Source: Paracyclopina nana (Eukaryota > Arthropoda > Copepoda > Cyclopoida > Cyclopettidae). From it: 64,000 bases of DNA. Below are positions 31,516 through 64,000 of the stretch, one piece after another. The stretch lies in NCBI GenBank assembly GCA_019096065.1, contig JAGUCH010000006.1, positions 6,468,001 to 6,532,000 on the forward strand, read 5' to 3'. Every line of letters begins with the position of its first letter. The first letter of the stretch is position 1. Position numbers and translations under genes: made by a program. Below the pieces are notes generated by a model. The model had not been told where the DNA came from, searched no databases, and worked only from the letters and a program-made list of their open reading frames with translations.

Positions 31516-31526
31516 GGGACGGCCGC

Positions 31527-34723: not shown

Positions 34724-34741
34724 TGGCGTCGATTCTCAGTC
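34724..34741 (+). promoter_or_regulatory. Primer-binding site
   Basis: TGGCGTCGATTCTCAGTC directly follows the LTR, where the tRNA primer anneals. The tRNA is not identified. Confidence 0.6.
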
Positions 34742-37457: not shown

Positions 37458-38258
37458 GATCAAATTTAGGGGGGATTTTAAAGCCGAATTGATAAGGGAT
37501 TTTAAAGTCGAATCACCTGGATTTTAAGATCGAACTGAAATTGATACTGGGTAATAAGATCGAACGGGAAAACAAAAAATGAACCTCCACCTGGATTTTA
37601 AAGTCGAAACATCTTGATTTTAGTGTCGAAGTTATGAAGTAAAACTTTGGACCCCTCTCATAGCCATATGAAGCAACTTTTATTTACCCATTTTTTTGGC
37701 CATTGTTAGGCCCCCTAATGCCCTGTTCATGTATCAAGAATGCCTTAAGGTATGGAAAAAATTGTCATAAGGAATAGTGAATCTGCTGCTGACTGCTACT
37801 CTACGAGTTCAGCTTTTTTTTAGTATCAGCTGGCGCTTGTCATAAGACAATTTTTCTCCTTTCCTTGAGGTGATTTTCGTGCATTTTCCTAAGGAGTTTG
37901 GGGCGTACATGAACAGGACATATAAGGGTGTCTTTGGAAATGGGATAGTTTTTATGCTACATAATTCATTTTTCACCTCTGAAAATTATACTATTATAAT
38001 TATTGGCTGTGGCAAGCAACTTTTATTTTTACTTAGATGAGGTTTGACTACTTTCTGGTGATTCGATCTTAAAATCCAGGTAATGTTTGGTGTTATAATT
38101 CACAGTTCGATCTTATTACCCTGAGACTTAAAATCCATCGGACTTAATACCCTACTCTTTCGACTTTAATACCCAGTCTCTAAAAAGCTTCGACTTTGTA
38201 ATCCCATGTTGATTTCGATCTTAAAATTTCGATCTTATTACCGTTCCCCCCAACTCCC
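37439..38258. mobile_element. 820-bp foldback insertion between gag and protease
   Basis: It is flanked by AAGGCCAA (37,431-37,438 and 38,259-38,266), an 8-bp duplication. Both ends are built of short units such as GGATTTTAAAGTCGAA and GGGTAATAAGATCGAA, direct on the left and inverted on the right, so the two ends can fold together. The interior holds the 100-bp repeat shared with 24,605-24,735. With the insertion and one target copy set aside, the gag frame runs into the protease frame. Confidence 0.8.
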
Positions 38259-41200: not shown

Positions 41201-41896
41201 GATGCAAATGCATCTTTATGGCTAGAAATTGAAGCACCTCACTCAACGCCCAGCATCAAAAAAAATTGTCCCCCTGTAAATTGCACGGTTATTATGGGTT
41301 CAGGTCAAAGTACAACCAACAGCGCTGACAAAGCAAAGACTCAGGTTGTCGATGAGACCAGCCACACTGGTATTAGACTTGCGGATATTGACATTATGGT
41401 CCCGCAAGGCTCCAGTGAAGAGGACAAGTCAGCTGCCGAGACAACTGGCAGAGATGTCACGCATTGGATCTTCTATGGAGTGGCCTTTTGCGCTCTTATG
41501 GCTTTGCTATGGATTGGGCTTCGGCTCAGGAAATGGCGGAAGAAGGCCAGCGCGAGGAAAAGGGCCAGAGACTCGCTGTTGATCATGCACTCTCAAGCGG
41601 CCGCAAATGTGCAGCCACAGGTCTACCCCCAACAAGCCCCTGCCCCATATGGCTGTCCAGGCTATGCGTCACCCTATGTCACGCCCTTCGCCTCGACAAT
41701 GTCTATCGCCCCGACCCCTCATCCGATGGTTTACCAACCGTTCCCAGGAGTTGTACAGAGCTTGCCAAACATGGCTTATGGAGCCTCCCCGCTGGGAAGT
41801 TCACCAACGGTTTCGCATCCTGACTCACCCCCCTTGCCGGAGGAGGAGCAGAGACGGCGAAATCGTCTCTTTGCCATCTCTTACAACAATATCTAA
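38259..41896 (+). pseudogene. pol: Pol (protease, RT, RNase H, integrase) plus C-terminal membrane ORF, frame-broken
   Basis: The protease motif LPDTGATITVV lies at about 38,310. RT motifs follow: VVGDCAQGYHQIKL with the first Asp. The expected YxDD box reads LVNDVLIWG, so the first of the paired Asp residues is Asn and the enzyme should be dead. A frameshift lies at the G run near 39,220, and in-frame stops near 39,425-39,465 break the frame before 39,476, where it reopens. RNase H (VLTTDAS, ELELLGIVYG, TDHKPL), integrase HHCC (HPGQTKS…CEMCQ) and D,D,E (IAMDLGHHEG, MRSDNAGCF, HHESNGTEE) are intact. The frame then runs past integrase into a 200-residue region with a membrane span. Confidence 0.87.
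41294..41896 (+). CDS. Post-integrase ORF with myristoylation signal, membrane span and Pro-rich tail
   Basis: It is in frame with integrase, but an internal ATG opens MGSGQSTTNS, a good N-myristoylation signal, about 600 codons into the pol frame. A hydrophobic span follows (HWIFYGVAFCALMALLWIGL), then a strongly basic stretch (RLRKWRKKASARKR) and a Pro/Tyr/Ser-rich tail of about 100 residues. It could be made as a separate protein from a spliced RNA or be a pol C-terminal extension. It resembles no Env I know: no signal peptide, no cysteines of a folded ectodomain, no cleavage site. The membrane-plus-basic design would suit an assembly or anchoring factor (inference). Confidence 0.55.
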   Translation: MGSGQSTTNSADKAKTQVVDETSHTGIRLADIDIMVPQGSSEEDKSAAETTGRDVTHWIFYGVAFCALMALLWIGLRLRKWRKKASARKRARDSLLIMHSQAAANVQPQVYPQQAPAPYGCPGYASPYVTPFASTMSIAPTPHPMVYQPFPGVVQSLPNMAYGASPLGSSPTVSHPDSPPLPEEEQRRRNRLFAISYNNI

Positions 41897-41920
41897 AGTG
41901 TTTTTCTCTATGTTGCAGGC

Positions 41921-42669
41921 ATGTCGAAAGGCCAAGCTAACCGTCCCCCCGTAGATTGGGATCATCCGGATTGGGACTCGCACATGTCGACGAGGGCCTA
42001 ATCGCACCAGCGCCACTCGATGTAGCCACTCTTGATGAGTTGGACGATGTAGCCAAGCTCAAAGCTGAATTGGCGAAGGCCAAAGATGAAATCTACAATG
42101 CCCAGTACAGGATCACCGAACTGGAGCATAATCTGGCCGAGGCCAACGGGGAGGTCAGGGACCTCATTTGGACCAAGGATGTGCTGCGTGCGGATTTGAA
42201 GCACCAGTACAATGGCTACAGGCGGATGCTGGACAAGATCTTTGACAATATCCACAAGGCCATGAACTCGCATAGCAAGAAATGGAAGCGGACTCGGATC
42301 GTCCCCATGACACCTCTGAGGGTGGTGGTTGACGCCGAAGGGGTCCGCAGAATCTCCAGACCGTGTTATGAGAATGCGGAATCTGCTAAGCATGATGGGT
42401 ACGCGGCCAGGGCTGGCAAGGCATACACCCGTCAAGGCATAATGCTGGAGGCCGAGCTTATTGGATTTGGCCAACTGGGCAAGGCATCCCACTTGGATGA
42501 TGGCTCTGATGTTGAAGCCCCTGTCACGAAGTCCGAGGTTGCCAAGATCATGGACTTGAAGCGTGACGAGTTGGCCAGAGTAGTCAAAGATGATCGCCAG
42601 AAGTACGGCATGTTTGTAGCTGCAATGGTAGCTATTGGTGTTGGAATGTTCATATGGTGCTCAAAATGA
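41921..42669 (+). CDS. Coiled-coil, tail-anchored membrane protein (ORF after integrase)
   Basis: A splice-acceptor-like TTGCAG lies directly before the ATG at 41,921. That start is out of frame with the main open frame, which begins before 41,956, so there is either a one-base shift or a start further on. The protein has an acidic N-terminus, a heptad-rich coiled coil (about residues 30-85), a basic middle and a C-terminal span (YGMFVAAMVAIGVGMFIW) ending in CSK. A single C-terminal anchor with a cytosolic coiled coil is the likely topology. The function is unknown; it is presumably expressed from a spliced retroelement RNA. Confidence 0.55.
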
Positions 42670-42936
42670 TGACCAATGGAGGGGAGGTTGCTTTGACGAC
42701 ATCGCCTTGAAGAGCAACATAGAGAAATGAAGACACTGGATCGGATGATGGAACTGAATTTTGATACGCTATGCATTTTTCCTATTTTTCTATTTTCATT
42801 AGGTTTTTTATGCTCTTATCGAAATTCTCGCTTGCTAGGTATGTCATAAATCCTAGGCCCCAAAATTAGTGTAGTTTGAGGTCAATTGATAGGCTAATAT
42901 GTTAGTGATTACAGCTACCCAGGGGTATCCGTACCC

Positions 42937-42948
42937 ACTTGGGGGAGG
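42937..42948 (+). promoter_or_regulatory. Polypurine tract
   Basis: The purine-rich run TTGGGGGAGG directly precedes the 3' LTR. Confidence 0.8.
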
Positions 42949-43243
42949 TGTTGTATCACGTTGAAGCATACTTCCCTATATTGACTCTCACGTGTATTAT
43001 AGCTATAGTAGATACTCCCTCTTGTTACCCCAGCGCGCGCTGCATTCATTCTTTCTGTCTCGCTTACAGCTTACACGTAAAATACACTCAGTACACATCT
43101 CGTATCACGAGGATACGTTCGCCTCGATCTGGTAAATCTCGGCATAGTAGTGCTCACGGTTTCCTGGTACAAGACCAGGGATCCAACCGACGTAGCTCGA
43201 GTAGTAGTGCCTTAAGTGTCACCCACGAGGTCGGGATCCACCA
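42949..43243 (+). repeat. 3' LTR
   Basis: It matches 34,429-34,723 with about three substitutions (for example CACG for CACA near the start and GGCATAG for GGCGTAG). Confidence 0.95.
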
Positions 43244-43925
43244 CAGACTGTCTGATTGAGCCAAAGGCAATGGAGGCAAGGGCTTCCTAGATAGAGTCTC
43301 GTATAGCTCCGGATACGACAGGGGCAGAGCCAGAGGCTCCATTTCAACGGTGTCCGCTTGACTGGCCTTTCGGTCAATGCATGCCTGGCACAAACAGCAA
43401 GCCGTGCACACCTTGTACAGCTTGTACAAGAGCAAGCTGGCTGCGATCAGAAGTGCCTGCAAAAAGCCTTCATTTTAATGGCTAGCTGCGACCGATCAAT
43501 GGATGCTTGCTTATGTGGAGAGAAAGTACACTTACGGTGATCACCACGATGACAGCCACTAACTCAACCCAGTCTTGGGGGGAGTAGAGGCCAAAGTCGA
43601 AAAAGCCGCGTTGAGGTTGCCCAAATTCGGGTGGGCCCTCAGTCGCATGCAAAACCGTAGTGGTGTCCACAGGAACCACAGCATGCGTGGAAGATTCCTC
43701 TGGCAACTGGCCTGTAGTCACAGTGGATGTGAATACTGTACTTGTTGTGGTGGAAGTACGGACCCATGATTCTGGCAAAGTCCACCTGGTAGTGGCAGTC
43801 AGAAGTCTTTGGGTGGTCTGAGTAGAGGATGGTGTAGTAGTGGCCAATGAGGCAATGCCTGTAGTTGTCATCATTGGAGCTGAAGTTGTACTAACTGTAC
43901 TAGTGGGAAGTCTTAAGAATCCCAT

Positions 43926-44273
43926 GATCAAAGACAACTTTTCAACAAAAAGTTGGGCTATTAAATGTGACGGGAGCAAGGAAGCTTCACAGACTGAGGT
44001 GAAAGCCGATCGGGGCATTGCCTTTTAATCTGGAGAGCAATGCTTGTGTCATTGGACCAGAGCATGAGCCTTGGAATGTGTTGATTCAGCGTTCTGAAGA
44101 CAAGAGAGACCAACGCTGACAAGAATGAAAAAGCGACAGCACAGGTGCTCGTCATAATAATATGAGGGTAGTGCTGGAGAAATTCAGGTATTAATAACGC
44201 CGGAAGGCGCTAATTGCTACCCTCTTAGAACATATAAAAGAAGTGGTGAAGACGAGTTAGTTATCAGTCCATG
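43926..44273. promoter_or_regulatory. Divergent promoter of genes 2 and 3, left arm
   Basis: A TATAAAAG box at about 44,233-44,240 precedes gene 2 by about 35 bp, and ATTAAAAGG (minus strand, 44,021-44,029) precedes gene 3 by about 95 bp. Both sit at the same distances as their right-arm equivalents. Confidence 0.65.
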
Positions 44274-46693
44274 ATGAACTCTGCTACTGACGCCACCTTG
44301 CCGTGTCTTGCTAAACTTGGCGAAGCTCAAACCTAGAATGTGCCACTGCAATCCACGAAAGGCAAGAAAAAACGAGTTAAGGCCAACTTAGGTGAAGCTC
44401 TTAAGCATGGGCCTAATGTATTGGTGATGATCCCGCAAATGAGTGAAGAGGAGCGGGATGCACTGCTAATGGAAGAAGTGCCAGGGGAGGAAGTCGAAGT
44501 CCAGGTCACTATGGATCAGGATGCCTACCAAGCTGCTGCTCGTTTTTGGGATGATGAAAGCGCTGGGCTAGATCGAATGGCTCTCTTTACGGAAACTCAA
44601 GTTATAGAGGAATCGAAAGAGGCTATTGAAGCTGAGCCAACTAAGGAGGGCGTGGAGGCTGCAGCCTCTATGCCGGAAAAAGAACTGGAAGCCACGGAAC
44701 ACGAAATTGCTAGTGGTGCCGAGCATGAAGTTGGGGGAAACTTACTAATCACTATTGTACTGACACACTAATCCCGAATTTTTATCACTACTGTACTGAC
44801 ATACCAACAGCTACACTTTATGAACAGTCTTACTAAGAACTACTGAACTGACACACTTACCGCTACACTCTTTGAACAAGTAGCATTTTGACATACTCAC
44901 TAGCCACTACACTTTTTGAACATGTAGATTAGTAACTACTAGTCAGACATTAACATTGTACAATAAATCAAAAAGCAAAAGCAAAATAAAAAAAGGACAC
45001 TCCCAATTCTTAAGTATTACCTGAAAAGCCTAACCTATAAAGCCTTCCTTTATAAGCCTAACTTGCAAATCATAATTTCAAAAGCCAAACATTGAAAGCC
45101 TAGCCTGAATTACCTAACCTTAAATATGTCATACTTCAAAAGCTCTAGTGGAAAAGCCTAACTTTAAAAACATAAACTCACAAGCCAAACCTTAAATGCC
45201 TAACCTTAACTACCTAACTTTTAACATGTCTTACCTTAAAAGCTTTACTGTAAAAGCCAAACCTTGAAAGCCTGGCCTTAAAATAATATATACCAACAGT
45301 ATACCAATGTGTAATCTGAGTACTCCTAATGTGACAGGAGTAGTGACTAAAGTGTCAGTGGTAGTGTAGTGCTTAGTATGTCAGTACAAAATGAGTATAT
45401 TTAATTCTGTATTGGTTACTACATCAGTATATGGACAGTAGTTCTTAGTGTGTCAGTAGCGTAGTGCTTATTATATATGTTCAAAAACAGTAGTGACTAA
45501 TGCGTAGAGGTAAAAACAGTAGTGTTTATTAATGGCACCCTGAAGTTGCCTGTGTTGCACCAGCAACCCACGGGGCGGAGCAGGAAGCTCGCAATGAGGT
45601 AGTAATCCAAGCACTGCCAGGGCCAAGGCCGCGTATAATTGAACTCCCACTTGGGGATGAGGCTGCAAGGCTTAGATACCCTGTACAGTACCGCGACCTG
45701 ATTCGGCCTCCCTTTCCGGATACAATATTGAACTATAATAGAAAAGCAACCGCTGTCAGAGCTGCAATCCAACAGGAATACTCTGAGGCGATGCTGAAAG
45801 TGGCAGTTGACAGCTCCCAAGCGACTTCTAGTCGTGAGAGAGCCTTTGATGTCACTGTGAGGTGTAATGGAGAGGTGTTGGAGCAACCAGAACCTCGACG
45901 TCCGCTGAAGGTATGTAACTTCGAGTCTTTCGAGTTACTCATAAAACCTGTTAGCAAGGGAGGGCCATTGCCAGACTTTATCGTGGTCTTCCTGATGATG
46001 GAATTTCTACCAGTCTTTAACTTGCCCAAGGAGGTATTGTACAATGACAAGTATCACCAGTGAGCAAACGTGAGGAACTGGGCAGCTATCCAAAGCCCCT
46101 CAGCACTTAGCTATGCGGTGTACAACGTACAAGGGAGAAATGGAACCAGGGTGCCAGTTGTGGTATCCAAACATGTGGCGAAGCACGGTGTTGTCCAGCT
46201 TAAACCTACATTGGATTCGTCTTTTGCCGACAATAGGCTATTATTGGATGTGAGCTCCCCCTACTTCCAGTTGTATGTGGGGACTCCGTCCTGTTTGATG
46301 CATGGAGTAGCGCAAGCACCCAGGAAGATTGACCTCAAGGTAGATATGACTGCATTGTTGCCTTTGGAAATGAGCCGATTTGTGGAAAGAGTCGAGCGCT
46401 CTAACCCTCAAGCAATGAGATTCATTAGTGGGGCTCGCTCTTTGCGCTTAGCTGAGATCCAAGACCGGAATCCTAAGACTCGGCGAGGCACCCGCACTTA
46501 TTTGGAGGCTGCAACTCAGCAATCGGCTGGGTCAGCTATGATCAAACAAGGGGCTCCAATGGCTAAGCGCACCAAGAATGACAAGGAAAAGGCTCGTTTG
46601 GGACAATTAATTGTGGCCAAAATGGAATCACTGTCTTCGAATGATTTGAAGTCATTTGGTGCAGCGATGAATGAATTTGTTGATCAATTTTGA
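44274..46693 (+). pseudogene. Gene 2, left copy: basic soluble protein, three breaks
   Basis: It is homologous along its length to the intact right copy (54,416-52,809). The breaks are an in-frame TAG at 44,334-44,336, the 807-bp insertion at 44,734-45,540, and an in-frame TGA at 46,061-46,063. Outside these the same frame is open, and the two copies share long identical stretches such as PLKVCNFESFELL and GQLIVAKMESLSSND, with roughly four in five residues the same. AATAAA lies at about 46,838. The insertion plus its target duplication keeps the downstream frame consistent with an originally continuous gene. Confidence 0.85.
44734..45540. mobile_element. 807-bp foldback/MITE-like insertion
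   Basis: It is flanked by TGAAGTTG (44,726-44,733; 45,541-45,548). The ends carry repeated ACTACTGTACTGACACACTAA-like units in inverted orientation. The middle (about 45,010-45,290) is an array of AAAGCCTAACCTTAAA-like units of 15-20 bp. There are no coding frames. The 8-bp duplication and GGG-initiated ends suggest a non-autonomous element mobilised by a hAT-like transposase, but this is a guess. Confidence 0.8.
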
Positions 46694-46961
46694 GCATAAT
46701 TGTATGTTTTTGACCTATGGAAATGACCTGTGGATTATGTCCATGAAAGATTACGGACACTTAAGCTTCGAGTTGGTCGAGCTTGAGAAATAATGTAATG
46801 TACTGTATAACATGGTCTTGTGCGCACCAGACTTTAATAAAATAAATGTTTGTAAGGCAAGCGGGCCCAGCCTGCGTGCCTGAAAGACAAAGGAAGAACT
46901 CATAACGGGGGGCTAGGCATTAGGCCTAGGCAGTAGTGCCTCAGACATCGCTGTGTTCGCT

Positions 46962-48836
46962 ATGCTTATTCTTGTGATTTTTACTCTATGTTTGCCAATC
47001 GGTAAAAGCCGTGTTGACAGACTTTTATTGGACGGGCCCATATGCCACAAAGGGCATGCATTGGTCCCGATTAGAGCATTGTATCATCCGAAACCTGATA
47101 AAAAGGCAGTGGTCATTGATACCAGCAACTTTCGCCAACTTCTAGATACCACTTTTGAATCGATCCATATATTGGAAAAGAGAGTAGGGCAGATAAAGGA
47201 AGAAATCCCAGTGCCCATTAATGATGTTGAGACCCACCATGACCTGCAATTCGTGGGCCTGCCAGCAGAACCTACTAAGTTGGACGAAAAATGCCAAACT
47301 CTAGGGGTGGACTTTAAGGCTTTTAGTCCTGAAACCCAGTTGGACATGGACAAGGCCCAGGAGCTATTGACAAATGCTGCTGATACCAATAATGTGAATC
47401 AGTTCACGATTTGCATAAAATTCCGATTCATTGGCGACTTCCCAGTGTCATTATCTGGCAGTGTGCCTTTCGCCAGAATACCTTACAAGGAAGTAGCAAA
47501 AGTTTCAGTAAAACCAGGCTTCCCTTGCATAACGGGGACGTTTGCTGAAAAGAAACTAGTAACAGCTCATTCCCATTTGTATGATGGGACTGCGACCTTG
47601 GGTACCTTATGTGTTCGTAACACATTTGCTACTACCCACAAAAACCAGATTGATAATAAGCTGTCTGGTGCTAAGGCTATAATAAATAGAGCCTTGTCCG
47701 CCTTGAAAAACCTTGCTGAGTCTGGCAGGACAACAAAATTTACTGAAAAAATGATAGAAAAGGTCAAACAATTGACTATTCCGGACAGTATAAGTGTAAG
47801 ACTGAATTTATTTAACAAATTTAGTGAGACATGTGTAAGTCTGGGATTCTTGCCTAAGGATTACAGGGAGGTTATTATAAACCTGGAACGCATACTCGCT
47901 TTTGCAAGGACCATTCGACAAGTAGACAAGCGCTTTAGTCTACCACAAGTGAATGTGGCCAGTGATCTAGAAAATAAGGCTATGACTAACAGTGTATACG
48001 ACCCTTTAACTAACACCGAAGTTGTGGGGGACAGTGTATCACAAGGAATGTTAAAATATCACACCCTGGATCCTGAGCCTGAGGTGACGTACAAAATAGT
48101 AGCTCGTAGTGTAAATGGACATGTCTTAGTCGACAAATTCTTGACTAAGGTCAAGGACTCAGTTTATGTCACGAAAGACTTGCCCATATACGGGGACTGT
48201 TATATACATGATGCTAATATCACAGTGTGCGGCAACAAGCATGTTATAGTGTCTCCAGAATCGCAGCAATGTGCCAAAATGTTGCTGGGTTCCGCCTTGG
48301 GGGACCCTTTTGAGCAGTGTGCCAAAACTCCCTTGACTACAAACGTGCTTGAGGAAGTGGCGTGTCCGGATTACCGTGGATTCTTGAATCTTGTCACTGA
48401 GGCATCTATAAATAGAACTTGTCTTAATGACTATAAGAACTCCGTGAATCTGGTGCCAGGTTCTTACCTGGTATTGAGCCAATGTCTAGTTACTATGGGA
48501 AATTCTAACACAGGCTATGACGACTCCCCTTGGGAGAGTGACATGCTGAAGTTCTTTACGAAGTTTCCTGAGGGGGAACCTCTTGATCTGTTTGATAATT
48601 GGAAGATCATCCTCATCATTAGCTCACTGTCAGGACTTATCCTGGTCCTGATAGTTAGTATTTTGATATGGAAACGAAGGGCTCTACTAAGACGGTGCTG
48701 CAGTGAGCCTGACTATGTTCAACCTCGTGCCCAACGTAGGACTAACGGAAGGGGTACTCGTGGTGAAGGAAAAGACCCTACTGAGATGGGGCTGATGACA
48801 GGGAGAAGCAAGCTTGGCGCTGCCACGTTAGTATAA
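46962..48836 (+). CDS. Gene 1, left copy: envelope-like type I glycoprotein, intact
   Basis: From the ATG at 46,962 it encodes 624 residues. It has a hydrophobic signal peptide (about 1-18), an ectodomain of about 515 residues with about 14 cysteines, several N-x-S/T sites in its C-terminal half (for example NRTC and NITV) and leucine/isoleucine heptads. One span (IILIISSLSGLILVLIVSILIW, near residue 545) is followed by a basic dicysteine start of the tail (KRRALLRRCC) and about 55 residues of cytoplasmic tail. This topology fits a viral envelope spike, but I see no furin site or fusion peptide and recognise no family. It follows gene 2 by about 270 bp with its own start. The right-arm copy has a stop codon. 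Confidence 0.82.
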   Translation: MLILVIFTLCLPIGKSRVDRLLLDGPICHKGHALVPIRALYHPKPDKKAVVIDTSNFRQLLDTTFESIHILEKRVGQIKEEIPVPINDVETHHDLQFVGLPAEPTKLDEKCQTLGVDFKAFSPETQLDMDKAQELLTNAADTNNVNQFTICIKFRFIGDFPVSLSGSVPFARIPYKEVAKVSVKPGFPCITGTFAEKKLVTAHSHLYDGTATLGTLCVRNTFATTHKNQIDNKLSGAKAIINRALSALKNLAESGRTTKFTEKMIEKVKQLTIPDSISVRLNLFNKFSETCVSLGFLPKDYREVIINLERILAFARTIRQVDKRFSLPQVNVASDLENKAMTNSVYDPLTNTEVVGDSVSQGMLKYHTLDPEPEVTYKIVARSVNGHVLVDKFLTKVKDSVYVTKDLPIYGDCYIHDANITVCGNKHVIVSPESQQCAKMLLGSALGDPFEQCAKTPLTTNVLEEVACPDYRGFLNLVTEASINRTCLNDYKNSVNLVPGSYLVLSQCLVTMGNSNTGYDDSPWESDMLKFFTKFPEGEPLDLFDNWKIILIISSLSGLILVLIVSILIWKRRALLRRCCSEPDYVQPRAQRRTNGRGTRGEGKDPTEMGLMTGRSKLGAATLV

Positions 48837-49430
48837 CGCTACAGTTATTTCTTAATTATAGTCGTTACACATTCAACTTTTTTCATATTTTAGTTCTTAA
48901 AATGATGACAAAAGCTGAAAAAGTTAGGCCCGGGGTAATGATGGACAACATGTCCAACCATAAGCCCTGGTGCACCGAGACACATAAGGGAATTGAGGGT
49001 GTCTATTCAGCGCAACAACATCACTGGGCTCACGCAACCTTTACCCTGGCCACCTTGGATACCTTGACTCGCATACCACGAATTGATATACGAAGTAGTA
49101 GTTGTGGGACACTGGGGAGCTACCTGGGCGAGCAGGGCCAACTGCTAGGTGGATTGGACTGCCAACTGACAAGCCGAAAAAGAGAAGAAAGAGAAGGGAG
49201 TTCTTCTGGGGACCTCAGAGAAGTAACATGTCGACCTCACAGCTGGAGGTTGACTGGGACAAACTCTGCCAGCAGCTGAAGCCAGGAGATCCTCACCAAC
49301 ATTTAAGAGTACTGGACAGACAAATCAGCCACAGAGAAGAAGCTTTATTATGTATTGTTTTGAGCTCTGATTGAAGTAGCTGTTGTGATGTGTTGTGCCT
49401 GCTAATGAATAGATAATACCACATAATACC
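48837..49430 (+). repeat. Inner arm segment, left (possible small gene)
   Basis: After gene 1 a T-rich tract ending in TTTTAG precedes ATGATGACAAAAGCTG at 48,903. The sequence matches the right arm (50,583-50,031, inverted) in blocks up to ACCACA at 49,428. Frames shift between the copies, so coding is uncertain. A 57-codon frame from about 49,204 (MSTSQLEVDWDKLC) is the best-conserved stretch but is broken on the right. It may be a spliced 3' exon of gene 1 or an untranslated region. Confidence 0.55.
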
Positions 49431-49692
49431 GCATCACGCAGCCCGCATCACGCAGCCCGCATCACGCAGCCCGCATCACGCAGCCCGCATCACGCAGCCC
49501 GCATCACGCAGCCCGCATCACGCAGCCCGCATCACGCAGCCCGCATCACGCAGCCCGCATCACGCAGCCCGCATCACGCAGCCCGCATCACGCAGCCCGC
49601 ATCACGCAGCCCGCATCACGCAGCCCGCATCACGCAGCCCGCATCACGCAGCCCGCATCACGCAGCCCGCATCACGCAGCCCACATCACGCA
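49431..49692. repeat. 14-bp satellite at the palindrome centre, about 18 copies
   Basis: Near-perfect head-to-tail copies of GCATCACGCAGCCC, with a single A for G change in the last unit. The array starts directly at the end of left-arm homology. Confidence 0.97.
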
Positions 49693-50030
49693 AACTCAAA
49701 TCGTGACGGCGACCTGATCTTTGCCTCATGCAATCACGGGAACCGGATAATGGAAGATGCATTGGTGTGCGACCGGTACGCCTTCTAGAACCTAGGAAGG
49801 TTTCAAAGCATCGGTTCAAGTCTAGTACCAGTCCGCAGCACCGGAGCTGCCAGGTCTCACAAGCCGCAGTGCAGAGGCCGCAGCCTCACGTACTCTGCTC
49901 CTGGCAAGGAACCTCTCGGCACGCTTATGTACAGTTGACCAGTGGTTAAGTCTCGCCCTTTCACCCTGATCATTCCAGGGATCGGGACCTTGCTATGAGT
50001 CTGAGCACTAATATACTTCATTAAGGTCTG
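49693..50030. other. Unique centre of the palindrome
   Basis: It has no counterpart in the left arm. Short stretches such as GACCAGTGGTTAAG and AGGGATCGGGACC hint at the internal promoter boxes of a tRNA-derived SINE, but I could not fold a tRNA. There is no long frame. Confidence 0.4.
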
Positions 50031-50656
50031 GTGGTATTTTCTATTCATTAGCTGGCACAACACAACATAACAGCTGCTTCTAATCAGAGCTCAAAACAAT
50101 ATATATGACAATAAAGTTTCTTCTCTGTGGCTGTTTCTTCAGTACTGTACTCTTCAAACTTGGTGAGGATCTTCAGGCTTCAGCTGCTAGCAGAGTTCAC
50201 CCCAGTCAACCTCCTGCAGTGAGGTTGACATGTTGTTTCTCTGAGGTCCCCTGAAGAACTCCCTTCTCTTTCCTTTTCTCCTTCACTCATTGGCAGTGCA
50301 CTCTCTTCATCTCAAGGCTGGCCCAGCTGGTCCAGGTAGCTTCATAGTATTCACAGCTACTATATAGCAGTATGTAGCATGTGAAGCAGAATTTGGCAAG
50401 GCAACCAGCCACCTGTGAAGCATGATGAAATGAAGGCAAGGTTGTGTGGTCCAAGTTGATACTGTTGCGCTGAATAGTCATCTTCTTCTTCCTTTCTTTT
50501 CCTATCCTTCCTTGCACCAAAGGCTATGATGGAACTCGTTGTCCATCATTACCCCGGCCCTAACTTTTTCAGCTTTTGTCATCATTTTAAGAACTAAAAT
50601 ATGAAAAAAGGTGAGTAAGCACTAATACGGTTAGAGAAAAAAGTGAAACTGTGGCC

Positions 50657-52540
50657 TTATACTAACGTAGCAGCGCCAAGTGCTTTCATTCCAATCAACA
50701 AGCCCACCGAGGCAGGCTCTTCCCTTGTGCCACGACGGCCCACACCGTTTCGTCGACGATGAGCATCCGGCATGACATAGTCGGGCTCACCACAGCATCG
50801 GCGTAGTAAGGCTCGACGTTTCCAGATCAAAATACACACTATGAGGATCAAAATGAGCCCAGAAAGTGTGCTTATGATTAGGATGATCTTCCAATTGTCA
50901 AACAAACCCAGAGGCTCTTCCTCAGGAAACTTTGTGAAGAACTTGAGTATGTCACTTTCCCACGGAGAGTCTTCATAACCAGTACTGGAACTGCCCAAGG
51001 TAACAAGACAGTAACTCAGTACCAAATAGGACCCTGGCACTAATGTAATGGAATTCTTATAATCATTTAGGCAGGTCCTGTTAATGGACACATCCTGAAT
51101 GACATTCAAGAATCCACGGTATTCCGGACTGGCCACTTCCTCCAACACATTAGAGGAAAGAGGAACCATTTCACACTCAGCAAATGGGTCACCCAAGGCT
51201 GAGCCCAGCAACATTTTAGCACAATGTCGAGACTCAGGCTGTACCTCTAAATGCTTGTTTCCACAGACTGTTACATTGGCATCATGCACATAACAGTCAC
51301 CATAAATGGGTAAGTCTCTGATGGCATACCCCAAATCCTTGTACTTTGTCAAGAATCTGTTAGCAAACACTTGTCCACCAATACTTCTTGACACTAATCT
51401 ATAAGTCAATTCAGGTTCAGGATCCAGGCTATGGAACCCCAGCATTCCTTATGACACACTATCGCCCACAACCTCAGTGTTGGCCAAGGGGTCATACACA
51501 CTGTTGGTCATGGCTTGACTTTCCAAATCACTCACTTCATTTACTCTGGGCAAACTGAAGCGTTTGTCCATTTGCCTAATGTTTTTAGCAAATAAGACTA
51601 TTTTCCCCAGTGTGTCTAGTACTTCTTTATAATCTTTAGGCAGGAACCCAAAGCTTACACAAGCATCACTAAACTTTTGCAGTAAACGTACTGCCAAACT
51701 TATATTGTCCGGAATGGTCAATCTTTTGACCTTTTCCATCATTCCATCGGTGAACTTTGATGTTATGCCTGATTCAGTAAGATTCTTCAAGGCAGCTAAA
51801 GCTCTGTTTACAACACCTTTAGCTCCAGATAAGGTACTATTAATCTGAACCTTGTGGGTAACAGCAAACTTATTGCGCACACAGATAGTGCCCACAGGGT
51901 CAGTTCCGTCAAACACATGAGACTTAGCTTCTACAAGCTTTTTGTCAGCAAATGTTCCAGTAATACAAGGAAAGCCTGGTTTAATTGACGCCTTAGCAGT
52001 ATCTTTCCAAGGTATTCTATCAAAAGGCACACTACCCGAAAGTGAAACTGGGGAGTTGCCAATAAATCTAAACTTCATACAAACAGTGAACTTCGCAGCA
52101 GTGTTGGTTTCTGCAGCCTTAGTTAACAGTTCTAAAGCTAAATCCATGTCAGCTTGGCTTTCCGGAACAAAAGCCTTAAAGTCAAATCCTAACGACTGAC
52201 ATTTTTTATCCAACTTAGTCGGTAGAGCACTCACACCTACATATTGTTTGTCATGGTATGTCTCTATATCCGAAGGCACATCTACAGTGGCCACTTTTTC
52301 TTTCAATTGTTCAACCCCATTTTCTAGCTTAATAACAGAGTCCAGGGTGTTTTCAAGAAGCAGGCGAAAATTGCTCGTATCTATCACTACGGCTTTTCTG
52401 TCTGGCTTCGGGTGATAAATTGTCCGTAAAGGGACCAAAGCATGCCCTTTATGGCATATAGGCCCTTCTAACACAAGTTTTGGCTCAACTCGGCCATTGC
52501 CACTCGGCAAGCACACAGTTAAGATGAAAAGTACAAGCAT
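50657..52540 (-). pseudogene. Gene 1, right copy: envelope-like glycoprotein with one stop codon
   Basis: The ATG at 52,540 opens a signal peptide. The frame is continuous to 50,657 except for a TAA at 51,449-51,451, about 363 codons in, where the left copy has a Gln codon. The downstream part carries the same conserved cysteines, the membrane span and the KRRALLRRCC tail start. A single substitution therefore truncates the protein before its anchor; a secreted ectodomain fragment could still be made. The gene otherwise looks under recent constraint. Confidence 0.87.
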
Positions 52541-52808
52541 GGTTCATAGTCGCCTGTAGAAGCACTACTGGCTAGGCCCCATGCCTGACATGCCCAATTT
52601 ATACTATCTAGCTGTACTCCAGGCACGGTGGGCAAGGCCTACCTGCCTGGCAGACATTTATTTTGTATAGCCAGGTGCGCACAAGACCATAACTTACAAT
52701 ACATACAATATGCTCGAGTCTAACCTACTTAGACTCGAGGTCCATTTAGCTTAGAAGACGGAAAAGTTTCCACAAATAAGTCCAAAATCAAGATCAAGGT
52801 CAACATAG

Positions 52809-54416
52809 TTAAAATTGATCAACAAACTCATTTATCGCAGCCCCAAAGGTTCTCAGATCATTGGACGATAGCGATTCCATTTTGGCCACAATTAGCTGTC
52901 CCAATCGGGCTTTTTCTTTGTCACCCCTGGTACGTTTAGCCATAGGGGCTCCTTGCTTAATAGACATGGCCCCCGCAGACTGGCTAGTGGCAGCCTCCAA
53001 ATAAGTGCGAGGTCCACGCCTGTTTTTCTGCGGTCCGTCTTGGGAGACGGCCAACCTCAAAGAGCGGGCACCAGTAATATACCGCATAGCTTGCGGGTTG
53101 GCGCGCTCCACTCGCTCAACAAACCTGCCCATGTCCATTGGCAACATGGCAGTCATGTCAACTTTTAGGTCAATCTTCCGAGGAGCTTGGGCGACCCCGT
53201 GCATCAAGCAGGATGGAGTACCCACATGCAATTGGAAATGGGGCGAGCTCACGTCCAAAAAGAGCCTCGTATCAGCAAAAGAAGCATCCAGCGTGGGTTT
53301 TAACTGGACTACCCCATACTTCGCCACGTGCTTGGACACCACAACCGGGATCCTAGCACCGTTCATTCCGTGGACATTGTACACCGCATAGCTGAGCGCA
53401 GAGGGACTCTGGATCGCAGCCCAAGTCCTAATGTTGGCCCTTCGGTGGTACTTGTCATCATAATCTTTAACTTTGGGCAAGTTAAATACTGGGAGGGCTC
53501 CCAGCATCAAGAAAACCACTATAAAGTCTGGCAGTGGTCCCCCCTCAGATACGGGCTTGAGCATCAATTCAAATGACTCGAAGTTGCACACCTTCAGAGG
53601 CCGACGGAAGTCTGGTTGCTCCAGCACCTCTCCATTGCAGCGGATAGTGACGTCAAACGCCCTCTCACGGTTAGCAGTTTGAGGGTTGTCAGCAGCTACC
53701 TTCAACAAGGCCTCATTATAGCCCCTCTGGGTCACGGCCCTTATGGCACTTGCGCGGCGCGCATAATTCTTGACCGTATCCAGAAAGGGCGGGCGAATCA
53801 AATCCTGGTAAGCCACTGGGTATTGCAGCCTAGCAGCTTCATCCTTCAGAGGGAGCTCGACAATGCGAGGCCTCCCCACATAACCTCCAGCTCGGACTGC
53901 CTCGCCATTGCGAGGAGTGGCTGGTTCTCCATCGTCCTGATCCATCCTTGCCACTTCACCCCCATTACTAGGGGCGCGATCTGTGGTGGCAATTTCAACC
54001 TCATGGTCCACCTGGTCAGGAATAACCAGATCAGCGGCTCTTTCCCCAGTTCTATCCAGAATTGGGGCATCTGCCTTGTTTGCTTCATCCCCAGTTTGGG
54101 TTTCAACAAAGAGGGCCATTCGATCCAGCCCAGCACTTTCTTCATCCCAGTACTGGGCATTGACTTCGTACGCATCCTGATCCATGGCAGAGGCCCCATC
54201 GGTGGGCACCCCGTCCATCAGCAATGCTTCATGGTCGTGGTCATCCATTTGTGGAATCATGACCATAGAGTCAGGTCCAAGCTTAGGAGCATTACTTAAG
54301 TCTCCTTTTCTTTGCTTGCCTTTTCCCTTCTTGGGAAGCTTGCCCGGTTCATCTTTGGCCAAAGCTTCACCAAGTTTGACAAGGGATGGCAGGGTAGAGT
54401 TGGAATCAGCGTTCAT
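52809..54416 (-). CDS. Gene 2, right copy: 535-residue basic/acidic soluble protein, intact
   Basis: It has no signal peptide or membrane span. The N-terminus (1-60) is Lys-rich (KKGKGKQRKG), residues about 60-190 are acidic and low in complexity, and residues about 190-470 form the conserved core with alternating hydrophobics (RAFDVTIRCNGEVLEQP; VGTPSCLMHGVAQAPRKIDL). The C-terminus is basic, then helical (AKRTRGDKEKARLGQLIVAK). Such a layout suits a nucleic-acid-binding or capsid/nucleocapsid-type protein, and its partner is an envelope-like gene directly downstream. I know no family to assign it to. TATAAAA lies about 36 bp before the start; AATAAA lies at about 52,660. Confidence 0.8.
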   Translation of the reverse strand: MNADSNSTLPSLVKLGEALAKDEPGKLPKKGKGKQRKGDLSNAPKLGPDSMVMIPQMDDHDHEALLMDGVPTDGASAMDQDAYEVNAQYWDEESAGLDRMALFVETQTGDEANKADAPILDRTGERAADLVIPDQVDHEVEIATTDRAPSNGGEVARMDQDDGEPATPRNGEAVRAGGYVGRPRIVELPLKDEAARLQYPVAYQDLIRPPFLDTVKNYARRASAIRAVTQRGYNEALLKVAADNPQTANRERAFDVTIRCNGEVLEQPDFRRPLKVCNFESFELMLKPVSEGGPLPDFIVVFLMLGALPVFNLPKVKDYDDKYHRRANIRTWAAIQSPSALSYAVYNVHGMNGARIPVVVSKHVAKYGVVQLKPTLDASFADTRLFLDVSSPHFQLHVGTPSCLMHGVAQAPRKIDLKVDMTAMLPMDMGRFVERVERANPQAMRYITGARSLRLAVSQDGPQKNRRGPRTYLEAATSQSAGAMSIKQGAPMAKRTRGDKEKARLGQLIVAKMESLSSNDLRTFGAAINEFVDQF

Positions 54417-54767
54417 TGTGGACTGTGAGGCAGCCCACCTTTGACGCGTCTTTTATAGCCCAAACAGGTAACCTACAGCGCCTCACAGCGTTATTATTAC
54501 CATAATTTCTCCTGCACATTCATATCAGTATAGTGCGCAATTTTCCTGTTGCTGAGGTGAATCATTTCTCCTCGCAGTGTTTGTCGCTCTTGTCTACAAG
54601 ATGCTGAGTCGACAAATTCTACCGCTCAAGACTCTGCCGAGTGACACCGGCCAAGCTCTCCAAAATATAAGGCAGAGCCCGGCTCAGCTTTCACTTCAGT
54701 CTTTAGCAGCCCATCAGTCCCACTACTTTTTAATAGGCCAACTTTTTCCAGTCGACACTAACAAAAT
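54417..54767. promoter_or_regulatory. Divergent promoter of genes 2 and 3, right arm
   Basis: CTATAAAA (minus, 54,451-54,458) serves gene 2 and AATATAAGG (plus, about 54,664) serves gene 3. Both positions are conserved in the left arm, although the sequence between them is diverged. Confidence 0.7.
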
Positions 54768-55799
54768 ATGGGATTCTTGCAATTACCGGTTACAACACCA
54801 GCAACTACTATTCTTGCAACAATGAGCACCACTAAGCAGCCTCCAGTCACCACTTCTCGGTGGATGCTGCCCGAGTCTAGGACTCGAACCTCGACGTATT
54901 TGACGGTGGCCTCTACTGAGGTTACCACGACTTCAACTACGCTATCACCAGTGACTTCATTGCCACCAGTACAGCGTCCCATGGAGCCAACAGAGGATTC
55001 GGGGCCAGAGACTCCAGCCTCATCCCATGGCTTCTTTGACTTCACTCTTTATAGTGCACAGGACTGGGTCGGTCTGGCCGCAGTCCTCACTATCATTTTG
55101 GTAGGCTATATTTTCGAAGCTCATTGTAATCTGTCCCAAGACTTATTCACAATCACCAATCGGTAATTTGAGCTTGTTTCCTTGCAGATTCTGATCGTCC
55201 TTATAACATGCCTCATGCACCAGTTGTACAAGAAGTGCAGGAGCTGTTGCCTCTGCCGGGCATGCGTGGAAAAGATCAAGACCGATGAACCAGTGGAACT
55301 GGAGCCACTGGCCCTGCCCCTCACTAGCCCCTCGGTCTCAGGTATCTATGAGACATTGACCCGGAGGCCGTTGCCATCACTTCCACCCTTGCCATCGGAC
55401 TTCGAGGGCATGATTGTTGTGCGGGGTGGGGTGCCCACTTTTCAAGTGGCTTCCCTTCCCCGTCAAGCCTATGTATCACCTGTGCACGAGCCCGTGTACG
55501 ATGTGCTGCGGCCAATGATACAAGTAAACCCCATTTTTCGTTTCTATCCTAGTGAAGTTAGAAATCAACATTTACTTTTAGTCCAGGAGAACTTGATTTA
55601 CTTCACATTCTTACTATTTCCATAATTGCAGGAACCTGGGGAGCTAGCCCCCAGCTTGCAGCGTAAACGAAATAAGAGGCGCCAGAATCGGAGCCAATTT
55701 TACGTGAACGCCCCTAGGACTGCTGGAGCAGCAATCCAAGAACTACCAATCGAGGCCACTGGTCCAGCGCCAAGCACTGCCGCGGAGCCCTCCAATTGA
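54768..55799 (+). CDS. Gene 3, right copy: mucin-like type I membrane protein, 3 exons, intact
   Basis: Exons 54768-55100, 55188-55523 and 55632-55799 keep frame and give 278 residues. The first 90 residues are Thr/Pro/Ser-rich (mucin-like, heavy O-glycosylation expected) with no clear cleaved signal peptide. A conserved FFDF.LYS.QDWV motif precedes a span encoded across the first intron (GLAAVLTIIL then ILIVLITCLMHQL). The cytoplasmic part starts with a Cys cluster (CCLCRAC), has the shared EPLALPL and YETL motifs (a Tyr-based sorting or signalling site is possible), and ends Arg-rich in exon 3. AATAAA lies at about 55,966. The left copy shares the exon structure, which shows these are real introns. 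Confidence 0.78.
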
Positions 55800-56191
55800 C
55801 GAACACGGACTCTTTCGTCAGACCTCGCATTGCGAGTTCCAATAGTCTTATTCGTAGTCATCCCACTCTTCAAGTTCAACTTTACTTTCTGGGTGGAATT
55901 CTTTCCCTTTAGCGGTCTGTTTTAGCACAATGTTATTGTTTTTATTTACATAAGCCTCGACAGATCCAATAAACTAATAAAGACACTAATGCCCTCATAG
56001 TCTTATTTTCATAACAAAAAGCCAACACCGCCAAGTGTGGTAGGGGCATTGGTCAAGAATACTGGCCTCGAAACCAGCGTTACTTTCCATTTTGAGCGAA
56101 AAACTCAAGTATTCTCGGCTCTTTCGAATAATCTCTGTACAAATTGTCACCCCATAGTCCGGTAGCGCAGTTTAGTATCATTCAAAACAGA

Positions 56192-56740
56192 ATGGCTCCA
56201 TTTATGGACGACTTTTTCGTAAGTGCATCAAAAATCCGTGAATTCTTCTGCAATCCAGTTCTTAACAGGCTTTTCCTGTGTATTTTCAGGCAAAAGCTTC
56301 AACATCAGCGGCAGCAGCAGCCACAACAGCGGCTCCGGCCCTCACTGCCGTCGACGGGGGGCAGGCCGCGGCCGAGTCCGCGGTCCTGCTGCCCCAGTAC
56401 CCCGCGCACCAGCAAGCGGGTCTCCAAGGCCAAACCTGCCAGGGGGATGGCGTTGTAAGTACTTTTCTAGTGGCAAAGACCCCTTCACAAGACTCAATTC
56501 GTACCTTTCCAGGCCGAAGAGATTCTCTAGGGCATCGCCATAAACGTGGCAGCGGCGGCCACCTATTACGGGTTGGTGCTCCCGGGCTTGGTCTGGGTGG
56601 TCCGGACCAAGCCCCAGGGGCTGTATCGGCTCGTTAGCCGGTTCTGGGCTGAGCCCGATCAGCTCCCCCGGGCTACCCGGTAGGTCCTCAGCCTCTGCGG
56701 GATCCCCGAGACAGAGGACCCCCTCGAGGGCGTGGTTTAG
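56192..56740 (+). pseudogene. Gene 4, right copy: small membrane-associated protein with one stop codon
   Basis: Exons 56192-56218, 56290-56454 and 56531-56740 match the left copy exon for exon (27, 165 and 210 bp). A TAG at 56,681-56,683 replaces the Trp codon of the left copy, removing the last 19 residues. The hydrophobic segment (INVAAAATYYGLVLPGLVWV) precedes the stop, so a truncated protein could still insert. An intron with acceptor TTTTGCAG (about 56,796) and AATAAA at about 56,882 follow in the untranslated region. Confidence 0.72.
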
Positions 56741-56959
56741 TAAGTTTAATTCTACATAGCACGAAGCACTTAACACATACTTTGCTTCTTTTGCAGAACT
56801 GTCCAATTTCCAAAGGGGGTGTGGCAAGGCGCACCTCCGGCCATCCCCATGTCGCACCCGGCCCCACCTCCCTTACGGGAAATAAAGCCAGCGCCACATA
56901 TTCTTAGTCTACTCTTTCTCGCTATTCATTTCGCGATCTTGAGCTGAGCTACTCAGCAC

Positions 56960-58640
56960 TTGGCTGACTCATCCAGCATCGTTAGCTCGCACTTTTTCAA
57001 GCACCTCAGCGAGATGCTGCGTTTTTTAGCTCCACCTCACACGAACAGTTACAGGTTAACCACATGTAGTTTCATGGATGGAGAGCAATAACCATGAATT
57101 CTAGGTTATGACCACATCTCATTATCTAGTAAGAAAGGGCAATAACCTTTTCGCGAGCATCACAGCATCTTCAAACGAGAGTTTGTACAATGCTGCTGCT
57201 CATATTTCGCTTTGATAGGACCCTATTCGGGTCCCACAAAATTACGTGCGTAGTGTAAATTAGGCAACCCAAAAATGCCATCTCTGAATAGAGCACACCT
57301 TTTTCTTAAGGTGGAGAGACAACTACTCATTTGGGCCCCATGTTACGTAGCACCTCAGCCTGGCCATTGGGGGCAGAACCCCAAGTCCAGGTGAGATATA
57401 AAATGGAGTAGTAGCAAATTCTCGCTTGTTTTGGGTTCATATTTCGTGCTTCAGCAGTCATTTTGCCTACTCAGCAGATTTGCGCCTACTGTTCCTTTCT
57501 TTTTCGGAAAAGCGAGTACTTTATTATAAAGTCAGGCCTTTTCCAGCTTCTTACTTAAGCCAGGTATATGCGTTCATATTATTGAATACAAGATACCCTT
57601 TGTATGCCTTAATAACCTAAATGGTAAATCAGCACTACCTGGTGGAATTTTCCCGAGCTATTACATTTTTTTTTAGATGGCGAGCTATCTTTAGCCCACT
57701 AACATGCTCAGTTCTTCCAACACAATCGATTCCAATGCAAGCTTACTTCTTCCGCTGGGAAAGTACTTTCGGCTAAGTTCACAGCCTTGTCTGTAAGCTC
57801 TGAAATAGTGCACGCAAATTTCCATAAAGCAATTTATGGTTTATGGCAATTGTTCATTCATTCGGCAGACTCTAATACACAAATATATTAGGGCTCCAAT
57901 CATGTCATCAGCATCTCATCTTAATGGGCGCATTGCCCTATAAAGATTGCTTGACTTTGTAGCAGCAGTGGTATTGTGGCCATAAGTTAATACTAAGCGC
58001 TTTAACTGAGGCGATCTGGGGATTCCAGTGTACTGCTTCATGAGTAACCACTGACTGCTACTGCACCGCCTGATCCCAGGGGCAGAACCCCAAGATCAGA
58101 CCAGCAATAAAATTATATTTGGACAAGGGCTGCCGCTATTAGCACGCCGAGTCACATTGATATATCTACATTGAGCACACATTCTGTACTCAGTGAGTTC
58201 CAGTATGCAAGATCTAAAAAGTTTTGGTCAAACATGACCACGTCTTCTTTAGCATAATTCAGTGCTTTTTCCCCGGTCATTGCTCTTTTACTTTTAAAAG
58301 TAGGTAGCAATTTCCCTGGGCGCTCAAGAGTTGAAGCTTCGGGGCGCCCCCTGGGGGGACCCACTGCTATTATCGCATCAACGTTTTCGCAGCGTTGAGC
58401 CATTCTCAACTCATTTTGACGTTAATTTGAGCTCTCATTATTGCCATCATCAGCTTATTATCTGTCTCGAACATAAGCTAGATTGGCCATAATATCGCCT
58501 TACCTTATAAGCGAGTCTCAGCATTCGCAAAGAAGTACACCAAAGATATGACGTCATATCTCCATTTGTTATTGTAGCTATGATTAGATTATTTTCCATC
58601 ATGGCTTTTATTTGTATCAAAGGGCATAAGCCCGGCAGAT
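56960..58640. repeat. Right arm outer flank, non-coding
   Basis: It pairs with 9,125-10,916. It contains the hairpins GGGGCAGAACCCC at about 57,369 and 58,079; the first is followed by ATATAAAATGG. No coding frame is conserved between the arms, so function, if any, is at the DNA or RNA level. Confidence 0.65.
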
Positions 58641-63980: not shown

Positions 63981-64000
63981 GACATCTTACCACTCGGCTT

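What the first reader, a model, noticed from the sequence alone, without database searches (positions are those of the whole stretch)
43244..56960. An unrecognised four-gene virus-like module
A nucleocapsid-like soluble protein, an envelope-like type I glycoprotein, a mucin-like membrane protein and a small hydrophobic protein occur together twice, with conserved introns, TATA boxes and poly(A) signals. No polymerase or integrase is in the module. It could be an endogenised virus domesticated into nuclear-type genes, or cargo of an unknown large element. This is the best candidate for an undescribed system in the window.
Basis: partly seen in the sequence, partly recalled or inferred. Interest (0 to 1): 0.9.

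Follow-up and report, generated by a model that had tools for sequence, protein, structure and literature searches.

The report
Giant retrovirus-like element, ambisense accessory genes
The four "virus-like" genes are the far end of a large retrovirus-like jumping element that carries its own copying enzymes, is present in dozens of copies in this genome, and unusually encodes several of its genes as separate units on both DNA strands.

Summary
The module is real but not free-standing: it is the 3' part of a roughly 24.7-kb LTR retroelement, with four subfamilies seen in this 92-Mb eukaryote. One copy whose ends I read has identical 709-bp TG..CA LTRs, a 4-bp target duplication and an 18-nt primer site complementary to a host tRNA-Thr. 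About 10 kb upstream of N lie reverse transcriptase, RNase H and integrase; a pol tail lies in the window at 62109-63986. G lies downstream of RT on the same strand at 59 of 67 RT places, 0 of 67 with strands flipped. N and G are sense genes; M and H are antisense with predicted introns. N has a conserved TATA box; N, M and H conserved AATAAA signals. G looks like a type I envelope protein. None of the four has a Pfam match above cut-off. Neither window copy is intact. "No polymerase" is wrong for the element; "cargo of an unknown large element" was right. New variant of a known kind; function and splicing are inferred, without RNA data.

The parts
49763..50548 (-). Copy 2: 3' LTR (786 bp), outer end at 49763
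   Evidence: inner end by alignment with the 709-bp LTR of another copy
50549..50569 (-). Copy 2: purine-rich tract directly inside the 3' LTR (imperfect polypurine tract candidate)
   Evidence: read; same place in the copy at C2:93 kb
50657..52543 (-). Copy 2: G, type I glycoprotein-like gene, broken by in-frame stop(s)
52809..54416 (-). Copy 2: N, open frame
54451..54457 (-). Copy 2: TATAAAA box of N, ahead of a CAGTC start-like motif
   Evidence: in 14 of 14 subfamily-1 copies examined
54768..55100 (+). Copy 2: M exon 1 (antisense to pol), Thr/Ser/Pro-rich ectodomain and first half of the membrane helix
55101..55187 (+). Copy 2: predicted 87-nt M intron inside the membrane helix
   Evidence: intron predicted at this place in 8 of 8 copies
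55188..55625 (+). Copy 2: M exon 2, rest of the helix, Cys-rich juxtamembrane part, tail with YETL and YDVL
55968..55981 (+). Copy 2: two AATAAA signals after M
   Evidence: at least one in 14 of 14 copies
56192..56218 (+). Copy 2: H exon a
56290..56454 (+). Copy 2: H exon b (acceptor as in the alignment; the script took an earlier one)
56531..56739 (+). Copy 2: H exon c (hydrophobic segment); meets an earlier stop than in most other copies
56797..56886 (+). Copy 2: H exon d, 3' untranslated, up to AATAAA at 56881
62109..63986 (-). Copy 2: C-terminal part of the integrase-bearing pol frame, with an in-frame stop at 63525-63527; pol continues beyond the window
33123..33731 (-). Copy 1: H gene (exon a 33731-33705, b 33633-33469, c 33393-33185, d from 33123)
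34429..43243 (+). Ty3/gypsy-type element inserted in copy 1's M gene (LTRs 34429-34723 and 42949-43243, 99% identical); not part of the system
43244..43924 (-). Copy 1: M gene (exon 1 43924-43536, intron 43535-43457, exon 2 from 43456, cut off by the insertion)
44233..44239 (+). Copy 1: TATAAAA box of N
44274..46693 (+). Copy 1: N gene, broken by in-frame stops and a dispersed repeat at 44734-45540
46836..46841 (+). Copy 1: AATAAA between N and G
   Evidence: in 15 of 15 copies examined
46962..48836 (+). Copy 1: G gene, open frame
48939..49428 (+). Copy 1: 3' LTR, truncated at the minisatellite
2..2692 (-). Left-edge relative (subfamily 3): start of pol with a DSG protease-like motif (by eye); an RT match lies just outside the window
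2693..5239 (-). Left-edge relative: gag-like frame with CX2CX4HX4C (by eye); ends TAA, then ATG of pol in the same frame
8160..8180 (-). Left-edge relative: TTT spacer plus the 18-nt tRNA-Thr primer-binding site, directly after its 5' LTR

Best explanation
The module is the 3' gene block of a giant (about 24.7 kb) Ty3/gypsy-like LTR retroelement, in effect an endogenous retrovirus of an unidentified eukaryotic host. Shown for the copy at C2:93-117 kb: two identical 709-bp LTRs (TG..CA), a 4-bp target duplication, a primer site that pairs with host tRNA-Thr, a polypurine-like tract, RT, RNase H and integrase. A gag-like frame with a zinc-knuckle motif and a protease-like start of pol were seen in a related subfamily at the window's left edge. 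Shown by comparison: downstream of pol the element carries two antisense genes (H, then M) and two sense genes (N, then G). N has a conserved TATA box, N, M and H have conserved poly(A) signals, and N, G and H evolve as proteins. Inferred: a full-length LTR transcript is the genome and the gag-pol message. N is made from its own promoter, and G either from its own promoter or by splicing. M and H are made from antisense promoters and spliced. Their introns survive reverse transcription because they are not introns on the genomic strand. G is the envelope glycoprotein and M a mucin-like surface partner, with H a small membrane protein. N is a cofactor of unknown biochemical role.
For: Homology between copies ends at the same ...ACACCA in 12 of 13 fetched copies (two of them with a variant of the end; the 13th, c7a, is partial) and extends at least 9.5 kb upstream of the anchor, at 97-99% in the closest pairs. 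The LTR end occurs 28 times at up to 3 mismatches: 12 same-direction pairs, 11 of them 23.1-24.1 kb apart and one 36.5 kb apart, plus 4 singles (paired by eye). LTRs identical, TSD CCAA. Primer site = exact 18-nt complement of a tRNA-Thr(AGT) 3' end plus CCA. RVT_1 1.4e-9 and rve 2.2e-8. G downstream of RT on the same strand at 59 of 67 RT places, 0 of 67 with RT strand flipped; N next to G at 64 of 79 G places, RT upstream at 60 of 79. Distant RT goes with distant G in the groups compared. Low dN/dS: N 0.08, pol tail 0.04 and 0.07, G 0.13. H exon c changes by codon position: 15/4/31 between subfamilies 1 and 2; within subfamily 1 7/5/11, 7/1/15 and 10/5/14. Ten invariant cysteines and one C-terminal membrane segment in 7 of 7 full-length G.
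Against: No transcripts were available, so splicing and promoters are predictions. In 5 of the 8 M copies my script found more than one possible splice pair, and I chose by open frame and alignment. The M intron was not confirmed in the one subfamily-2 copy read: a GTAAGT is at the right place, but the only acceptor found did not give the expected tail. The H search pattern itself requires the donor GTAAGT, so that count is not independent evidence for it; the alignment of 6 sequences is. H was not found in 2 of 16 sources. A G TATA-like box is in 9 of 15 copies only, and that of M in a part. A sense AATAAA between N and G should cut short a full-length genomic RNA; I cannot say how this is avoided. 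G has no detectable relation to any known envelope family. 5.8 kb (gag, protease) of the C2 copy was not read; gag was seen only in subfamily 3, with zf-CCHC at E 0.28. A genome-wide gag search did not complete. The target duplication was read for one copy only. Subfamily-3 G was not scored against subfamily-1 G.
Confidence: 0.82

Rival explanations
1. An endogenised virus whose four genes have been domesticated as ordinary host genes.
For: TATA boxes, poly(A) signals and predicted introns look like host genes; N, G, H and pol are under purifying selection.
Against: 79 places with a G match, LTR-bounded copies, identical LTRs, broken copies, and RT upstream in 60 of 79. Selection between subfamilies is as expected for an active element.
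Confidence: 0.03
2. The N-G-M-H block came as a unit from another virus (unknown RNA or DNA virus) and was captured once by an ordinary LTR retrotransposon before the subfamilies split.
For: Self-contained genes with their own signals on both strands; capture of env genes from RNA viruses by LTR elements is documented (PMC5408684 and PMC6431247, passages read).
Against: No donor was found: no relatives of N or G in viral contigs or the protein database. M and H were not looked for in subfamilies 3 and 4. Compatible with the best explanation; it concerns origin only.
Confidence: 0.3
3. The antisense genes M and H are not expressed; the conserved pattern reflects sense-strand constraints such as RNA structure.
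For: No transcript data. No Rfam match in the window, but structure in the block was not otherwise tested.
Against: Aligned GT..AG sites, H exons more alike than introns within subfamily 1, third-position changes in the H frame (15/4/31), AATAAA after both genes.
Confidence: 0.08
4. Host genes captured by the element (transduction), carried passively.
For: Gene-like signals; LTR elements do capture genes.
Against: N and G are present in divergent subfamilies at about 22-48% protein identity and under purifying selection, so not recent passengers. I did not test whether the 19 of 79 G places without a scored RT upstream all lie in elements.
Confidence: 0.05

Closest known systems
Burro giant gypsy-like LTR retrotransposons of planarians (PMC6431247, passages read)
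   Same: Giant gypsy-like LTR element, internal part above 20 kb, extra genes, an envelope-type gene
   Different: Burro has one huge polyprotein with env in frame between gag and pol and host-like domains; here there are separate genes on both strands downstream of pol, two with predicted introns, and no known domains in them
Retand and Grande plant LTR elements (PMC11963269, abstract and passages read)
   Same: Long pol-to-3'LTR region with antisense genes; Grande's accessory gene has its own promoter according to a title cited there
   Different: Plant elements; Retand has 2.9-6.6 kb in that region and mostly TRP28 proteins, and its sense ORFs there encode no transmembrane regions; here about 12 kb, membrane proteins, two antisense genes with predicted introns
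HTLV-1 HBZ and related antisense retroviral genes (named in PMC11963269; that HBZ is spliced is recalled)
   Same: Antisense gene in an LTR-bounded provirus
   Different: HBZ is a nuclear regulator; M and H look like membrane proteins, and no sequence relation was tested
Bdelloid rotifer LTR elements with extra ORF3 types (PMC5408684, abstract and passages read)
   Same: LTR elements with env or other extra genes after pol
   Different: A single ORF3 per element in the passages read; here four extra genes
Terminons of bdelloid rotifers (PMC6431247, passages read)
   Same: Giant retroelements with many accessory genes
   Different: Penelope-type, telomere-attached; here LTRs, integrase and a target duplication

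Membership tests
LTR retroelement (retrovirus-like) | Direct terminal repeats beginning TG and ending CA | tested here: met
   709-bp identical pair in one copy; 12 same-direction pairs of the LTR end
LTR retroelement (retrovirus-like) | Short target-site duplication | tested here: met
   CCAA on both sides in the one copy read
LTR retroelement (retrovirus-like) | tRNA primer-binding site after the 5' LTR | tested here: met
   18-nt exact complement of tRNA-Thr(AGT)
LTR retroelement (retrovirus-like) | RT, RNase H, integrase | tested here: met
   RVT_1 and rve above their curated cut-offs; RT_RNaseH_2 E 6.4e-5 but below its cut-off
LTR retroelement (retrovirus-like) | gag with zinc knuckle and protease | tested here: inconclusive
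   Seen by eye in the left-edge subfamily-3 element; zf-CCHC only E 0.28; no Pfam match for the pol start; no PDB match for either
Ty3/gypsy superfamily | Domain order PR-RT-RH-IN and RT nearest to Ty3/gypsy | tested here: inconclusive
   Order RT-RH-IN met; two database hits at 21-23% identity, one named transposon 297-like; no tree was made
Errantivirus / baculovirus F-type or other known Env | Homology of G to a known envelope family | tested here: not met
   No Pfam family for window G; other members only LapA_dom and YkuD at E 0.19 or worse; best PDB hits a penton protein at E 0.1 over 54 residues and a lipase, none better with a profile; none in the protein database
Burro | env inside one gag-pol polyprotein | tested here: not met
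   G is a separate frame, median 11 kb downstream of RT
Retand | Antisense TRP28 protein | tested here: not met
   No Transposase_28 among the Pfam hits for M and H at E <= 1
Negative-strand RNA virus nucleocapsid (N) | Nucleocapsid homology or fold | tested here: inconclusive
   No convincing sequence match; fold not tested, structure prediction switched off

The most novel reading that the evidence does not exclude
A separate lineage of giant, complex retroviruses whose accessory genes work like a DNA virus's: independent promoters and poly(A) sites on both strands, spliced antisense membrane proteins, and an N-G pair (possibly from an unknown virus) kept for the whole history of the lineage, so that one provirus mixes retroviral replication with ambisense gene expression.
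Probability: 0.4. Interest if true: 0.82.

Novelty: new variant of a known kind. Interest (0 to 1): 0.64.

Why it matters
Retroelements are expected to be short and to express their genes from one LTR promoter. This one has about 23.3 kb between its LTRs, and four genes downstream of pol of which three carry conserved signals of their own. Introns on the antisense strand are a neat way to keep introns through reverse transcription, and they predict which transcripts must exist. A conserved sense poly(A) signal inside the genome poses a testable question: how is a full-length genomic RNA made? N, G, M and H are protein families without known relatives in the searches made here, and may come from an unknown virus.

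Tried and rejected

Sequence homologues: N and G against PDB, Pfam, the protein database (8000 and 7999 candidates scored, none E<=1) and viral contigs gave nothing convincing; the best were a penton protein for G (E 0.1) and a thioredoxin-type protein for N (E 0.14) in PDB. M had only weak Pfam hits (best DUF3149, E 0.03, below cut-off) and H none. The Pol fragment had no match in phages and two weak hits among 8000 scored in the protein database. Rfam: no match in the window at gathering scores.

Finding integrase by family: the rve search was swamped by other LTR elements (565 candidates, 150 scored), so it could not show this element's integrase.

Leader splice donor: no GTRAG in the first 668 nt of one 5' leader; the remaining leader of that copy was not read. 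The M exon-2 dN/dS was out of frame and is not used.

Papers: searches (for 'giant endogenous retrovirus' and similar terms: 0 papers). I found no description of such an element in these searches, which cover open-licence papers only. The host was not identified.


Full report
What the window holds. The window is C6:6468001-6532000 of an unnamed 92-Mb genome in 10 contigs. The finding covers two tail-to-tail copies of a gene block. Copy 1 (+) runs from the edge of an inserted Ty3/gypsy-type element (34429-43243, LTRs 99% identical) to a minisatellite at 49429. Copy 2 (-) starts at 49763 and runs out of the window.

The block belongs to a larger element. The copy-1 block matches many places in the genome. 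I fetched two 10-kb stretches around each of 13 further matches. In 12 of the 13 the similarity ends on the right at ...ACACCA (two with a variant of this end), followed by unlike flanks; the 13th, c7a, is a partial copy. To the left it continues to the limit of what I held, 9.5 kb, at 97-99% in the closest pairs. The region of M is the most changeable: between some copies that are otherwise about 90-97% alike, nucleotide alignment is lost just there (c2c against c2a, c4b and c3). The 33-base right end occurs 28 times in the genome at up to 3 mismatches: 12 pairs in the same direction, 11 of them 23.1-24.1 kb apart and one 36.5 kb apart, and 4 unpaired (pairing by eye). These are LTRs.

The ends of one copy. 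In the copy at C2:92724-117439 (24.7 kb) the LTRs are identical over 709 bp (711 with two chance bases), begin TG and end CA, and are flanked by CCAA on both sides. Directly inside the left LTR, after TTT, lies TGGAGGCCCCGGAGGGAT. Its complement, extended with a recalled T-arm, finds one exact place and eight with one mismatch, and none for the reversed control. The exact match lies in a tRNA-Thr(AGT) gene by ARAGORN, and the 18 nt pair fully with its 3' end plus CCA. The same primer site follows the LTR of the related element at the window's left edge (8160-8180). A purine-rich tract lies just inside the right LTR.

Polymerase and integrase. The 4 kb upstream of what I held encode RT (RVT_1, E 1.4e-9), RNase H (weaker) and integrase (rve, E 2.2e-8). 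The integrase frame continues as the window's ORFs 63986-63525 and 63524-62109 (78% identical over 403 aa). RT was scored at 67 of 390 candidates, with open frames of up to 2669 aa. G lies 5-26 kb downstream on the same strand at 59 of 67; with RT strands flipped the count is 0 of 67. N lies within 2.5 kb upstream of G at 64 of 79 G places, RT upstream at 60 of 79, both at 52 of 79. Of the 19 G places without RT, 8 belong to the most distant subfamily, for which the RT query is poor (51%); lists are lower bounds because only the best candidates are scored.

Subfamilies. Four groups appear. RT is about 94-99, 75-84, 65-71 and 51% identical to the query. G is 58-72% in the first group and 39-49% in the second, pieces included, and 27% for the one fourth-group G compared; third-group G is 28-29% identical to fourth-group G and was not scored against the first group. 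So distant RT goes with distant G in the groups compared, which suggests long co-inheritance; no tree was made. The left edge of the window holds the 5' part of a third-group copy: primer site, gag-like frame 5239-2693 ending TAA directly before an in-frame ATG, and the start of pol with a DSG motif. An RT match lies just outside the window, and by distance its G is the one at C6:6449014-6450714.

Genes. G: a hydrophobic start in 5 of 7 full-length sequences, ten cysteines invariant in 7 of 7, one conserved NRT site, one membrane segment near the C end, and a tail ending -ATLV in the first- and second-group members that reach it. N: 458-547 aa in the fuller copies, no consistent membrane segment; named N only for continuity. 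M: what look like two small genes are two exons of one antisense gene; the intron, 67-91 nt, lies inside the membrane helix in 8 of 8 copies, 7 of 8 with a TTGCAG-type acceptor; in several copies other splice pairs were possible. H: a second antisense gene with exons of 27, 159-165 and 206-209 nt and an untranslated fourth, found in 14 of 16 sources with a pattern that includes the donor and seen independently in an alignment of 6 sequences. In two copies (window copy 2 and c5) the script took another exon-b acceptor, and H ends early. Between the C2 copy and subfamily 2, H exon c has 15, 4 and 31 changes at codon positions 1, 2 and 3; within subfamily 1 the counts are 7/5/11, 7/1/15 and 10/5/14. 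Exon c is 75% identical against 52-61% for the introns between subfamilies 1 and 2 (exon b, at 48%, is not more alike than the introns there); between window copy 2 and the C2 copy exons are 82-89% and introns 53-69%. An AG 18 nt upstream is also present before exon c in the alignment and would end the protein early, so two H forms are possible.

Signals. N has TATAAAA about 30 nt before CAGTC in 14 of 14 subfamily-1 copies examined. AATAAA follows N in 15 of 15 and M in 14 of 14, and H in the aligned copies. A TATA-like box ahead of G is in 9 of 15 copies, and one ahead of M in part of the copies.

Selection. dN/dS is 0.08 for N, 0.04 and 0.07 for the pol tail and 0.13 for a close G pair; the other N and G comparisons were saturated at silent sites.

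Novelty. Nothing convincing matches N or G in Pfam, PDB, viral contigs or the protein database, nor M or H in Pfam. The viral and protein databases were searched by short patterns or shared words, so remote relatives can be missed. Giant LTR elements (Burro; PMC6431247, passages), antisense genes between pol and 3' LTR (Retand, Grande; PMC11963269, abstract and passages) and captured env genes (PMC5408684, abstract and passages) are known separately. Their combination, with antisense genes predicted to be spliced and to encode membrane proteins, was not found in the searches listed.

How it most likely works. Shown: an LTR element with primer site, integration mark and enzymes, with one recent insertion (identical LTRs). 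Inferred: genomic RNA from LTR to LTR; N, and perhaps G, from internal promoters; M and H from antisense promoters, with their introns protected from loss because the genomic strand does not carry them as introns; G as envelope, M as mucin-like partner, its changeability fitting a surface protein. Open: how the genomic RNA passes the poly(A) signal after N, and what N does.

Noticed in passing
window 44734-45540: An ~800-bp dispersed repeat inside N of copy 1, with 21 other near-full-length matches at 91-100% in the genome and similar inverted ends by eye; probably a non-autonomous DNA transposon.
   Followed up: partly
window 25606-32624, minus strand: A second gypsy-like element with gag-like, pol and an env-like frame pair; pol has RVT_1 and RNase H matches, the two env-like frames no Pfam match. 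The first holds an RQKRF-type cleavage motif (recalled as errantivirus-like).
   Followed up: partly
window 39461-42669: The Ty3/gypsy-type element that cut copy 1 carries, after integrase, a hydrophobic segment and a further 242-aa frame with a C-terminal hydrophobic end (by eye); no Pfam match above cut-off for the latter.
   Followed up: no
window 57000-62100: About 5 kb between pol and H with no long frames but short blocks conserved between subfamily-1 groups, some in a different order.
   Followed up: no
window 49429-49692: A 14-bp minisatellite, 18.9 copies, between the LTRs of the tail-to-tail copies.
   Followed up: no
window 9558-10571: Fragments of the same element in copy 1's orientation, probably its displaced upstream part.
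   Followed up: partly
window 11944-12867, minus strand: A ubiquitin carboxyl-terminal hydrolase-like frame (UCH, E 8.5e-8), perhaps a host gene.
   Followed up: no
window 55188-55625 and L016:7868-8446: M tails keep YETL/YGTL and YDVL/YDVP motifs between subfamilies; possible sorting or SH2-type motifs (recalled).
   Followed up: no
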